Origin: Chloroflexota bacterium
GTDB lineage: Bacteria > Chloroflexota > Anaerolineae > Anaerolineales > Villigracilaceae
Direction: 5' to 3'
Assembly: GCA_021795965.1 (NCBI GenBank)
Contig: JAJYOU010000003.1
Span: 1 to 64,000, forward strand
DNA: 64,000 bases
Shown here: positions 14,008-30,391 of the stretch, piece by piece
Position numbering within the stretch: position 1 is the first letter of the stretch
Layout of the letters: each line of letters starts with the position of its first letter
Program-made: the position numbers and the translations under genes
The notes under the pieces: generated by a model
What the model was told of the DNA's origin: nothing
Databases searched by the model: none
What the model saw: the letters and a program-made list of their open reading frames with translations, nothing else

Positions 14008-15165
14008 TTATTTTTGATTCAAAATTCTGTAAGCCTGATTAATCTCGTGAGCAGCAACACGCACATCATTTGCGTTTGTAAATCGTCCAGAGCTGACCCT
14101 GATTGTTGAAGCCGCATCATCTCTACTTAAACCAATCGCTGTTAAAACATGCGATGGCTCTACCGCTCCAGAAGTACAAGCAGAACCAGTACCAATCATA
14201 ATTTCGGGCGCATTCAGTATCAACGCATCGGCATCAATGCCGGGAAATGTTAAGCTACTGGTGTTGGGCAATCGATTCTCTACTGCACCATTGATTTTTA
14301 ACATTGGAACAGACGCCAGTAATTTTTTTTCTAAGGTGTCTCGCAAACTACGTAATCTTGGCAATTCTGCGGATAATTCATCCCTATAAATATGACAAGC
14401 CTCGCCAAAACCTACAATGCTTGGCACATTGCTTGTCCCAGAACGCAATCCATTCTCCTGACCACCACCATACCAGATTGGTTCCATTGGAATAGCATTC
14501 GAACCGCCATGCACAAATAACGCCCCAACCCCTTTCGGCCCGTAAAGTTTATGGGCGCTCATCGAAAGCAGGTCAACATCCCAATCACCCACATTCACAG
14601 GAATCTTGCCAACAGCCTGCGCCGCATCACAGTGAAAAAGCGCGCCATTTTGATGCGCCAACTCGGCTAGTTGAGAAATCGGTTGGATGGTACCAATTTC
14701 GTTGTTAGCACCATGAATAGTTACAAGCAGGGTATTCTCATCAATTGCTTCTCGCGCCGCATCGATAGAAACCCGACCTTCGGCGTCTACGGGCAGGAAA
14801 ACTACCTCAAAGCCTTCATCTTCGAGCTTTTTGCAAGCCAATAAAACCGCCTTATGCTCGATGGCGCTGGTAATGATTCGCTTGCGCTTGCCATTGCGAT
14901 TTATGCGCGCAACACCCAGGATTGCAAGATTGTCACTTTCAGTGGCACCGCTGGTAAAAATGATTTCTTTTTCACGCGCACCAATCAAAGCGGCAACCTT
15001 TTCACGTGCGTCATCAATCGCCCTGGCCGCTAAGCGGCCTTGCCGGTGCAGGCCGTTCGCTGGGTTGCCATAAATCTCGCTAAAATAGGGCAACATTTTT
15101 TCGACAACGCGCGGATCACACGGCGTAGTGGCGTTGTAGTCGAGGTAAACACCTTCTATGTTCAT
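14008..15165 (-). CDS. Cysteine desulfurase (IscS/DndA-like), last gene of the BREX-like operon
   Basis: 'VYLDYNATTPCDPRVVEKMLPYF', PLP 'SMSAHKLYGPKGVGALF', 'GTGSACTSGAVEPSHVL'. Confidence 0.9.
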   Translation of the reverse strand: MNIEGVYLDYNATTPCDPRVVEKMLPYFSEIYGNPANGLHRQGRLAARAIDDAREKVAALIGAREKEIIFTSGATESDNLAILGVARINRNGKRKRIITSAIEHKAVLLACKKLEDEGFEVVFLPVDAEGRVSIDAAREAIDENTLLVTIHGANNEIGTIQPISQLAELAHQNGALFHCDAAQAVGKIPVNVGDWDVDLLSMSAHKLYGPKGVGALFVHGGSNAIPMEPIWYGGGQENGLRSGTSNVPSIVGFGEACHIYRDELSAELPRLRSLRDTLEKKLLASVPMLKINGAVENRLPNTSSLTFPGIDADALILNAPEIMIGTGSACTSGAVEPSHVLTAIGLSRDDAASTIRVSSGRFTNANDVRVAAHEINQAYRILNQK

Positions 15166-15168
15166 AAA

Positions 15169-29000: not shown

Positions 29001-29468
29001 ATCCTTCAGTCGCTCTAGCGACTGAAGCAGCCCGTGCTTGACACATTCCTGCAACGGGGCGCGGTATCCCGCGATTGGCACAGGCAAAAGCCCCTGAGTG
29101 CTGCCGTGATTGAGCGCTTCTCGGATGCGATTCGCCAGCAATTCATCTGCGCTTTGGAGTTGTTCGAAGACAAAACCATGTGCCGTCTGCGTTTTACCCA
29201 TTAAATTCATCAGGAAGAGTCCGAAGAACGACTTTCCCGAGCCATAAGGTCCAGTAAGAGTCCAAGAGCGTGATGGGGTTTTACTATCAAATGAATTTAG
29301 AATCCGGCTCAAGCTGGCACGCGCCTGGGCGGTCAAGACATATCCATCCGCAATGACCGCATTGCCCAGATCGCGCTCAACATTGATGGAACGCAATCCG
29401 CTTTGTCGAATGTTTATTACATCTTGAATGCGCCTTTGGGCTGGGGAGGTTAAGTTATGATTGCTCAT
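26064..29468 (-). CDS. Large P-loop ATPase of the second DUF4007 module
   Basis: 'TLTGPYGSGKSFFGLFLMNLMG' Walker A, 'GLLFIFDEMGKPLEFA' Walker B; 1134 aa. Confidence 0.7.
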   Translation of the reverse strand: MSNHNLTSPAQRRIQDVINIRQSGLRSINVERDLGNAVIADGYVLTAQARASLSRILNSFDSKTPSRSWTLTGPYGSGKSFFGLFLMNLMGKTQTAHGFVFEQLQSADELLANRIREALNHGSTQGLLPVPIAGYRAPLQECVKHGLLQSLERLKDAEKIKPLLVELGNWPAQIESRTITRWLKRLLEIITQPDFGYAGLLFIFDEMGKPLEFAANHPEETDIYLLQELAEFANRSGKTPFVFVGILHQAFEQYAHLLDSKTQREWSKVQGRFDDIPFQEPANQQIRLLANAIEYTEKAPLNGTEPALQQAAQEAARTGWCPPMMKTDEFAGLAMQTYPLHPTALAALPFVFRRLAQNERSIFAYLASHEPAGFQEFIERNLVGEFIRLPDLFDYLAANFQGRLYASGRARAITETVEKLGNLTNITETEAALLKTIGMLTWLTEVSALQSNETSLFSALRSETNPDERLRESLRSLQARSLIVFRRFNKTYSIWQGSDVDIEERLEQAQQQLRGSFSLAAAVQKYMMPHPIAARRHSYQTGTLRYFEVCYLDSFSRSEVDLNPAPGASGKVLLCLPINYAETEAFLHWATEAAMGERENVVFGVVERPGRLAELLYELSCLHWVEENTPELRDDPVARRELRTRLMAIESLVRNNIDRTLSPYRLSEAAGCKWFQGGKEVSAKANQGLSHLLSEICDRLYYQSPILWNEIINRRQLSSQGASARRSLVEAMLTRADQKILGIEGFPPERSMYDSILQASGLHRQLENGAWGFVPLDNTDRLNLKPIWQAISDYIFTETPEPRPVAELYRLLGETPYGLTNGVLPVILCAFMIIHQGETTLYNTGTLLPEPTIANWELLLARPELFQVAGCKVSGTRQAILERFARAYQVEPQVMPVVRSLIRGVKSLPEHAQSTKRLSERTIAVRSALIQARSPELLLFVDLPVAVELESFEHQTLMAEQVHKFFGRLNTALTELANEMPRLLGWGRDELLTACGLETGEASWSVFRTLAAELAARTTHPYLLPLLKRAAETPEAQAALESALAYLANRPPRAWTDADTDRFAAQAQMLGELFQTERRGFATDASLSAEQRQRSRRVADDLRQHLEQQYGDDPQVLKTALQIVAQEYLKKFNT

Positions 29469-30391
29469 AGTGCCTCATCAGCAGTTCCATCGCCTGGCCT
29501 CTAAAGTCATTCCCGATGATTTCATTCAAATAAATCTGAGTCAAGCCGGCAGTTTCTTGAAGACGAATCATTCCGCTGGTGAAGCCTTCAAGTGATTCCA
29601 GATATTCGATCACAGTATTTTCATCCAATTTGAAAACCTGGCCAGGGCTTCCCGGCTGATAGATGACTTCATCAATCCCGACTGTCCGGCGGCTTTCGAC
29701 GGTCCGCGAAAAAAACGTCAACAAAGCATACCCAAAGATACCTAAAGGCAAGGACATTTTTGGACCAATGTTGAAGCGATAAAAACCGTCATCAGGTAAA
29801 AAGCGAAGAAGGTCCAGTTCCGCTAGTGGACAATCTAGCGTCTCTTCAGAAATTGCGCCCAATTTCATTTTAGCAGGGAGATACGTGCGCAGGCAAAACT
29901 CAATTTCCCGCTCAATTGCGCCATCCGTTGTTTTGATCCCGCGTTGTTCCAGTTGATTTAAAAGAAATTTTTGCAGACTAAGACGGGTAAATTCAGGTTC
30001 GAGATAGATTGAAAAGAGCAGATGCCACACAAATCCACGTGTCAAACCGGTCGTAAGTTGCCAGTGCAGCAACCACAAAGAACCGACGTCCTCCAAATAT
30101 GGATCCCAGCCCTTGTCTCCTAATAATTTCTCAGCTAAATCCGTTGGCTGTAAAGGCCGCGCCAACCCTGCACCGTTAGTTTCCTGCACCAATCCGGTAG
30201 CCAAGCACCAATGGCGAATCGAGCGCACCATATTCTTGCCAACACCAAGTTCAGCCAGTGCCTCATCGCGCGTGAAAGCCAGTGGTTCTTTCTTAACAGC
30301 ATCCACGCCTTTTTTTCAGCCATCCATGCCGAAAAACAAATTTTTCATGGCCGCCAAACATCGGTCGGATATTTTCTTCGAGTGAATTCAC
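29455..30391 (-). CDS. DUF4007-family protein (copy B), apparently frameshifted near its 5' end
   Basis: Main ORF 29455..30306 has 'WDPYLEDVGSLWLLHWQL'; upstream frame encodes the canonical-looking N-term 'NSLEENIRPMFGGHEKFVFRHGWLKK' joined at an A7 run (30310-30316). Confidence 0.65.

What the first reader, a model, noticed from the sequence alone, without database searches (positions are those of the whole stretch)
14008..30391. Expanded type 4 BREX / phosphorothioation-like defence operon without a methylase
Seen: nine consecutive minus-strand genes with short gaps or overlaps, in order DUF4007-B, 1134-aa ATPase, PAPS-reductase-like protein, DUF4007-A, BrxF-like, 1672-aa BrxC-like, PglZ, BrxL, cysteine desulfurase. 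Established: type 4 BREX was defined (Goldfarb et al. 2015 classification) by a PAPS-reductase gene (brxP) with brxC, pglZ and brxL, in place of the PglX methylase of other types; PAPS-reductase (DndC-like) plus cysteine desulfurase (DndA) is the sulfur-handling pair of Dnd phosphorothioation. Inference: this locus makes a sulfur-based self mark and uses BREX effectors. The two DUF4007 genes, extra large ATPase, BrxF-like gene and dedicated desulfurase extend the minimal four-gene form.
Basis: partly seen in the sequence, partly recalled or inferred. Interest (0 to 1): 0.82.

Follow-up and report, generated by a model that had tools for sequence, protein, structure and literature searches.

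The report
Sulfur-marking Ssp operon with BREX core
A nine-gene anti-virus operon from an uncultured Chloroflexota-type bacterium joins a complete set of enzymes predicted to mark the cell's own DNA with sulfur to a separate, complete set of BREX-type defence proteins with their own motor; it recurs gene for gene in other bacteria and offers a clean way to test how BREX tells self from foreign DNA.

Summary
Observation confirmed with corrections: nine tightly packed minus-strand genes at 14008-30391. The first (DUF4007-B) is interrupted by a one-base frameshift at an A7 run (30316-30310); an otherwise identical 311-aa copy on another contig is intact. Identities: sspB, sspC (the 1134-aa 'extra' ATPase), sspD, second DUF4007, small AAA-like gene, 1672-aa BrxC-type ATPase, pglZ, brxL, sspA.

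The order is conserved in many loci (Chloroflexota, Thermomicrobium, Hymenobacter, Pseudanabaena), with a second divergent clade. It is not canonical type 4 BREX (brxPCZL): no BrxP fusion, PglZ fails the type-4 model (15.7 versus cut-off 140), and there are two BrxC-type ATPases. Best reading: a full SspABCD phosphorothioation (PT) module plus a complete methylase-free BREX core, with two parallel DUF4007+ATPase pairs. One Abditibacteriota plasmid carries the same core next to an N6-methylase.

In 9 of 24 operons a PT sulfur-binding domain (PDB 8H0L family, E 1.7e-35) precedes or is fused to the second DUF4007, never to SspB in the homologs examined; so that DUF4007 probably belongs to the PT-sensing effector half. 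The window's copy lacks this domain. PT-based BREX is already published; the two-ATPase architecture and reader fusion I did not find described. New variant; function unproven.

The parts
29455..30391 (-). sspB (DUF4007 no. 1), DNA-recognition subunit of the PT-modification half; broken in this assembly by a one-base frameshift at the A7 run 30316-30310 (open frame 29455-30306 from a GTG)
   Evidence: PADLOC SspB 249 bits and Pfam DUF4007 230 bits; intact 311-aa copy P0129 matches solved SspB 6JUF, E 7.6e-39; frameshift
26064..29468 (-). sspC, 1134-aa BrxC/ORC-type ATPase of the modification half
   Evidence: PADLOC SspC 1050 bits; Walker A GPYGSGKS and Walker B FDE conserved 16/16 at key positions; SspC clade support 100
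25169..25984 (-). sspD, PAPS-reductase-like sulfur transferase, 271 aa, not fused to DUF4007
   Evidence: PADLOC SspD 373 bits against BrxP 36 bits; SGGKDS loop and five cysteines invariant in the family
24290..25150 (-). second DUF4007 protein, paralogue of SspB; proposed DNA-recognition / PT-sensing subunit of the effector half
   Evidence: Pfam DUF4007 53.7 bits; separate clade from SspB; fused to a PT sulfur-binding domain in 2 loci and 9 of 120 database homologues, 0 of 120 SspB homologues
23851..24303 (-). 150-aa AAA-like protein without Walker A; positional equivalent of BrxF/BrxB
   Evidence: AlphaFold2 mean pLDDT 87; Foldseek best hits generic AAA+ domains, E 4e-3; sister-clade positional homologues hit BREX_3_BrxF E 3.5e-7 and 2.7e-6; no direct sequence link to BrxF
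18817..23835 (-). 1672-aa BrxC-type ATPase ('C2') of the effector half; about 1400 aa in most relatives, here with a duplicated C-terminal segment
   Evidence: AlphaFold2 of residues 1-700 (pLDDT 84); Foldseek top seven hits are BrxC of Acinetobacter BREX, best E 9e-11; hhalign to SspC 98.9-99.1% and to type-1 BrxC 98%; Walker motifs conserved
16626..18794 (-). PglZ-family alkaline-phosphatase-superfamily protein, 722 aa
   Evidence: PADLOC PglZ 324 bits; motifs DG, DHG, HGG invariant 18/18; below the NCBIfam type-3 and type-4 cut-offs
15169..16629 (-). brxL, AAA+ protein of 486 aa without the Lon-like C-terminal part of the 679-aa solved BrxL
   Evidence: TIGR02688 514 bits over the 329 cut-off; PADLOC BrxL 744 bits; solved BrxL 8EMC/8EMH E 1.5e-50 over residues 37-470
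14008..15165 (-). sspA/dndA-type cysteine desulfurase
   Evidence: PADLOC DndA 502 and SspA 499 bits; PLP lysine 206 and active-site Cys330 conserved 17/17
31184..31259 (-). tRNA-Glu (CTC) upstream of the operon; flank of the defence island
   Evidence: ARAGORN and Rfam

Best explanation
The operon is a self-contained, two-part PT-based defence system. Part 1 (SspA, SspB, SspC, SspD) writes the self mark: SspA frees sulfur from cysteine, SspD carries and inserts it, and SspB with the SspC ATPase selects and opens the DNA site, giving (by analogy with Ssp) a single-strand phosphorothioate. Part 2 (second DUF4007, small AAA-like protein, 1672-aa BrxC-type ATPase, PglZ, BrxL) is a complete BREX core without a methylase. 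It assembles on DNA through the second DUF4007 and its own BrxC-type ring, checks PT status, and blocks DNA that lacks the mark through PglZ and BrxL. The two halves use paralogous DUF4007+ATPase pairs. Shown by computation: gene content, homology, intact catalytic motifs, conservation of the set, paralogy, and a PT sulfur-binding domain next to or fused to the second DUF4007 in many relatives. Inferred: PT chemistry in this host, sensing of PT by the effector half (the window's own copy lacks the reader domain), the sign of that sensing, and phage resistance.
For: SspA/C/D matches of 373-1050 bits and 249 for the truncated SspB; BrxL over its curated cut-off; PglZ by PADLOC with invariant motifs; 1672-aa ATPase as BrxC by fold. 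Gene-for-gene synteny. All 13 Chloroflexota genomes (of 399 sampled) verified to hold the second-type DUF4007 also hold an SspB-type DUF4007, usually in the same locus. Second DUF4007 and SspB are separate clades, as are SspC and the C2 ATPases apart from the uncertain place of type-4 BrxC. Pairwise distances of SspC and C2/PglZ/BrxL correlate at r 0.91-0.94 (shared ancestry not removed). PT-reader domain in 9 of 24 operons, E 1.7e-35 to SBDHga1 8H0L, fused only to the second DUF4007. The same five-gene core sits beside an Eco57I/N6-type methylase in an Abditibacteriota plasmid.
Against: No PT, restriction or phage data. The window and 15 of 24 operons (window included) lack the sulfur-binding domain in the operon, and none was found in the 62%-complete genome, so sensing must there be done another way or not at all. 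sspB is frameshifted in this assembly. The Abditibacteriota link is a single plasmid, and its genome was not checked for ssp genes elsewhere. In G078 the SspBCD genes and the five-gene core are on different contigs.
Confidence: 0.72

Rival explanations
1. It is simply a type 4 BREX with split and duplicated genes: BrxP split into SspD and DUF4007, BrxC duplicated, and all proteins forming one complex that both writes PT and restricts.
For: Type 4 is PT-based, shares SspB/SspC/SspD homology, PglZ and BrxL, and often has a cysteine desulfurase (PMC12839542). Type-4 BrxC may branch with the second ATPase (support 87).
Against: PglZ 15.7 bits against cut-off 140; SspD 36 bits to BrxP against 818 canonical; SspC matches SspC models far better; canonical loci have four genes. 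SspB and the second DUF4007 are old, separate clades.
Confidence: 0.17
2. PT activates rather than restrains the effector half (as PT-dependent SspE does): the sulfur-binding domain and second DUF4007 recruit the BREX core to PT sites and license attack on other DNA.
For: SspE requires PT to act (PMC8092258). A PT reader fused to the second DUF4007 fits recruitment as well as inhibition.
Against: SspFGH and DndFGH, the multi-gene restriction partners, attack PT-lacking DNA (PMC8092258). Most operons here lack the reader domain.
Confidence: 0.3
3. The two halves are independent systems that sit side by side: a solitary SspABCD and a methylase-free BREX-like core that uses another mark or none.
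For: Block order varies in clade II and in G078 the halves are on different contigs. An N6-methylase-linked version of the core exists.
Against: In clade I sspA follows the core while sspBCD precede it, in one operon with gaps of at most 79 bases. All 13 verified genomes with the core also have SspB. PT-reader domain attached to the core's DUF4007.
Confidence: 0.1
4. The locus is a decaying system in this host: the sspB frameshift is real and the operon no longer works.
For: Frameshift in the A7 run.
Against: Identical intact 311-aa protein on another contig; all other eight genes intact with conserved catalytic motifs.
Confidence: 0.08

Closest known systems
SspABCD with SspFGH or SspE (single-strand PT defence, Vibrio / E. 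coli)
   Same: SspA, SspB, SspC, SspD all present with strong model matches; proposed self mark identical in kind
   Different: No SspE or SspF/G/H; the effector half is BREX-type (second DUF4007, small AAA, BrxC-type ATPase, PglZ, BrxL)
Type 4 BREX (brxPCZL; Methanosphaera NZ_CP118754, G263)
   Same: PT chemistry by homology in place of a methylase; PglZ and BrxL; cysteine desulfurase in many
   Different: BrxP not present as a fusion; PglZ below the type-4 cut-off; two BrxC-type ATPases and two DUF4007 proteins; separate small AAA-like gene; nine genes rather than four
Type 3 BREX (brxF-brxC-pglXI-brxHII-pglZ-brxA)
   Same: PglZ of these operons is nearer to type-3 PglZ than to types 4 or 1 by hhalign (97.5-98.4%); sister-clade small gene hits BrxF; order F-C-Z
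   Different: No PglXI methylase or BrxHII helicase; BrxL present; the C2 ATPase is nearer to SspC than to type-3 BrxC (DUF6079)
Type 1 BREX (brxA-brxB-brxC-pglX-pglZ-brxL)
   Same: Same set of roles: DNA-binding protein, small AAA-like protein, BrxC, PglZ, BrxL; solved BrxC is the nearest fold to the 1672-aa N-terminus
   Different: Methylase replaced by SspABCD; DUF4007 in place of BrxA; PglZ and BrxC not recognised by type-1 models
Dnd (DndABCDE-DndFGH)
   Same: DndA-like cysteine desulfurase and a PAPS-reductase-fold sulfur transferase
   Different: No DndB, DndD, DndE or DndFGH in the operon; SspD only about 21 bits to DndC

Membership tests
Ssp phosphorothioation module (SspABCD) | SspB, SspC, SspD encoded together, with SspA or IscS | tested here: met
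   PADLOC 249 (truncated SspB), 1050, 373, 499 bits; solved SspB 6JUF E 7.6e-39 for the intact copy
Ssp phosphorothioation module (SspABCD) | Phosphorothioate present in host DNA | not testable with these tools
   Needs LC-MS/MS or PT-seq
Ssp defence (SspE or SspFGH effector) | SspE or SspF-SspG-SspH next to sspBCD | tested here: not met
   All operon genes scanned; none matched SspE/F/G/H models
BREX type 4 | BrxP: PAPS-reductase fused to DUF4007 | tested here: not met
   Separate 271-aa SspD; BrxP model 36 bits against 818 in Methanosphaera
BREX type 4 | PglZ of type 4 (NF033445) | tested here: not met
   15.7 bits, cut-off 140; canonical 533
BREX type 4 | Single BrxC | tested here: not met
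   SspC plus the 1672-aa BrxC-type ATPase
BREX type 4 | BrxL and no methylase | tested here: met
   TIGR02688 514 bits over 329; no methylase among the nine genes
BREX (any type) | BrxC-family ATPase | tested here: met
   By fold for the 1672-aa protein (Foldseek E 9e-11 to BrxC 9zll) and by hhalign; no curated model passes its cut-off
BREX (any type) | PglZ | tested here: met
   PADLOC PglZ 324 bits; DG/DHG/HGG motifs invariant
BREX (any type) | Modification of self DNA by a BrxX/PglX methylase | tested here: not met
   None in the operon; SspABCD in its place
BREX type 3 | BrxF | tested here: inconclusive
   Window protein: no match. Sister-clade positional homologues: BREX_3_BrxF E 3.5e-7 and 2.7e-6, under the cut-off
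BREX type 3 | PglXI methylase and BrxHII helicase | tested here: not met
   Absent from the nine genes
Dnd | DndC, DndD, DndE | tested here: not met
   SspD about 21 bits to DndC; SspC matches SspC/BrxC models, not DndD; no DndE match

The most novel reading that the evidence does not exclude
A distinct BREX class in which writer and restrictor are built on duplicated DUF4007+BrxC-type ATPase pairs: SspB-SspC writes phosphorothioate, while the second DUF4007 with the 1400-1700-aa ATPase, the small AAA protein, PglZ and BrxL reads it, in many members through an attached sulfur-binding domain. It would physically separate the modification and restriction complexes that are entangled in other BREX types.
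Probability: 0.5. Interest if true: 0.8.

Novelty: new variant of a known kind. Interest (0 to 1): 0.62.

Why it matters
How BREX distinguishes self from foreign DNA and what its effectors do is still open, partly because in known BREX types the same proteins are needed for both marking and restriction. Here the marking half is a known, separately characterised module (SspABCD) and the BREX core has its own DNA-binding protein and ATPase, so the two activities should be separable by simple gene deletions. The sulfur-binding domain attached to the second DUF4007 names a candidate PT reader and predicts which protein senses the mark. It may also account for part of the sspBCD clusters that have no SspE or SspFGH partner, reported as 2,211 of 2,678 (PMC8092258); that share was not measured here.

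Tried and rejected
PbeABCD as the identity of the four downstream genes: rejected; PbeA-D are an HKD-nuclease/helicase, a small protein, a CxC ABC ATPase and a DndE (PMC10853773). SspFGH as the effector: no match. Direct sequence identification of the 1672-aa protein: no Pfam, NCBIfam, PADLOC or PDB sequence match of weight; solved by fold search. Direct link of the 150-aa protein to BrxF or BrxB: no sequence signal; fold search only says AAA-like, and BrxB of 9zll was not among the 50 hits shown. Frameshift as programmed: rejected, since relatives and an identical copy are intact. tRNA-end direct repeat marking an island boundary: none in the window. Copies of the operon in viral contigs: none confirmed by the 1672-aa family. 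Mapping the sulfur-cavity residues of ScoMcrA (H116, R117, P165; PMC6224610) onto the sulfur-binding gene by alignment: not achieved, because ScoMcrA was not among the sequence hits; the invariant PHK and PP-F motifs are only suggestive.
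Full report
What is there. The window holds nine minus-strand genes from 30391 down to 14008, with gaps of -14 to +79 bases. The genome is a 1.9-Mb, 62%-complete MAG whose closest loci come from Anaerolineae. Family scans give: DUF4007/SspB; 1134-aa SspC (1050 bits); SspD (373 bits); a second, divergent DUF4007 (53.7 bits); a 150-aa unknown; a 1672-aa unknown; PglZ (324 bits); BrxL (744 bits by PADLOC and over the TIGR02688 cut-off); and a DndA/SspA cysteine desulfurase. 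So four genes are the complete PT-modification set of the Ssp system, and the other five are something else.

The first gene is broken in this assembly. The conserved N-terminus starts at the GTG at 30391, but the frame is lost in a run of seven A at 30316-30310; the remaining frame starts at 30306. A database protein of 311 aa from another contig is 100% identical over the 283 residues and has the full N-terminus. The frameshift is therefore an assembly error or a polymorphism.

The 1672-aa protein. Sequence models do not recognise it, although it has 415 homologues, mostly about 1400 aa. hhalign relates it to SspC (98.9-99.1%) and to type-1 BrxC (98%). An AlphaFold2 model of residues 1-700 (pLDDT 84) has the BrxC structures of the Acinetobacter BREX system as its seven best PDB matches (best E 9e-11), followed by ORC/Cdc6 proteins. 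It is a BrxC-type ATPase with intact Walker motifs. In a tree SspC forms one clade and the second ATPases another, with type-4 BrxC placed uncertainly beside the latter (long branches).

The 150-aa protein. The predicted fold is alpha/beta, AAA-like, without a Walker A motif. Its positional homologues in a sister clade of operons mostly keep a P-loop and two of them hit the BREX type-3 BrxF model at E 3.5e-7 and 2.7e-6, below the curated cut-off. 'BrxF-like' is thus a positional inference for the window's protein; a degenerate, inactive AAA in the place of BrxF/BrxB is the reading I prefer.

Recurrence. A single scan of species genomes with the 1672-aa family returned 23 loci. Wherever enough DNA is present they carry the same genes in the same order: sspB, sspC, sspD, (optional gene), second DUF4007, small gene, ATPase, pglZ, brxL, sspA. 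The order is also found in Thermomicrobium roseum (megaplasmid NC_011961), Levilinea, Hymenobacter glacialis, and, more divergent and with inserted genes, Pseudanabaena. A second clade in other Chloroflexota has the same plan with a P-loop-bearing small gene and 1300-1700-aa ATPases; in some of these the two blocks are adjacent but rearranged, and in G078 they lie on different contigs. In 399 Chloroflexota genomes, all 13 in which I verified the second-type DUF4007 also have an SspB-type DUF4007, against 34 of 399 genomes with any DUF4007. Distances between the writer and effector proteins correlate, which shows long co-inheritance but does not remove shared ancestry.

Two parallel pairs. The second DUF4007 and SspB are separate clades in a 63-sequence tree (91/80 and 99/97 support). 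The operon therefore carries two DUF4007 proteins and two BrxC-type ATPases, arranged as SspB-SspC with SspD, and second DUF4007 - small AAA - ATPase with PglZ and BrxL. The second set lines up role for role with BrxA, BrxB/F, BrxC, PglZ and BrxL. In an Abditibacteriota plasmid the same five-gene core lies next to a 1119-aa Eco57I/N6-type methylase with similarity to PglX and DrmMI, and no sspBCD in that stretch. That suggests that the core can be coupled to either kind of mark, but it is one case.

A PT reader. In 9 of 24 operons with this interval visible, a small gene lies between sspD and the second DUF4007, or is fused to the latter. Its profile matches the solved DNA sulfur-binding domain SBDHga1 (PDB 8H0L) at E 1.7e-35 and almost nothing else. 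Nine of 120 listed homologues of the second DUF4007 have this domain fused at the N-terminus; none of 120 SspB homologues does. Sulfur-binding domains of this kind bind phosphorothioated DNA through a hydrophobic cavity (PMC6224610). This independently supports PT as the mark and places PT sensing on the effector half. The window's operon has no such gene, and none was found in its incomplete genome, so for this locus sensing by another part is an assumption.

Comparison with the known. PT-based BREX is not new: type 4 BREX is published as brxPCZL and as PT-dependent, with SspB/C/D homology and a frequent cysteine desulfurase (PMC12839542; PMC11931770). This locus fails the defining features of type 4 that I could test: BrxP fusion, type-4 PglZ, single BrxC. 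It meets SspABCD but not SspE or SspFGH. Its PglZ is nearest to type-3 PglZ by hhalign (97.5%).

Mechanism and confidence. I think PT written by SspABCD marks self, and the BREX core blocks DNA without it (0.72 for the two-part architecture; the sign of sensing is less certain, with a PT-activated model at about 0.3). No experiment on this system exists in what I read. Interest 0.62: a clear new variant in a known field, with a directly testable separation of marking and restriction.

Noticed in passing
window 1924-13786: The left flank is a defence island: a protein with weak methylase similarity (1924-3357), a SNF2-type helicase similar to BrxHI/DrmD (3449-7138), an AAA ATPase close to NsnB (8403-10004), and a PHP-AAA protein close to Ppl (11072-13786).
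   Followed up: partly
window 30660-30902: An 80-aa HTH-type ORF lies just upstream of the operon on the same strand (PADLOC HTH_VI, weak); a possible regulator.
   Followed up: no
window 18817-19665: The 1672-aa ATPase has an extra copy of its C-terminal segment of about 270 aa (two family matches); most relatives are about 1400 aa. A BLASTP self-comparison of the region did not show the repeat, so the copies are divergent.
   Followed up: partly
window 15169-16629: BrxL is 486 aa and lacks the C-terminal part of the 679-aa solved BrxL.
   Followed up: no
   Followed up: no
L093 (NZ_AP025289.1) 5940-16108: Treponema saccharophilum plasmid: DUF4007, 1200-aa ATPase, class V aminotransferase, DEAD helicase, ATP-binding protein and phospholipase-D-type protein; possibly another Ssp-like system.
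   Followed up: no
L069 (AP024153.1) 12509-25159: Abditibacteriota plasmid: N6-type methylase followed by second-type DUF4007, P-loop small gene, BrxC-type ATPase, PglZ, BrxL; a methylase-based counterpart of the five-gene core.
   Followed up: partly
L006, L019, L022: Loci titled Paludibacter, Omnitrophota and Caldisericales carry genes close to Anaerolineae ones; possibly mis-binned contigs.
   Followed up: no
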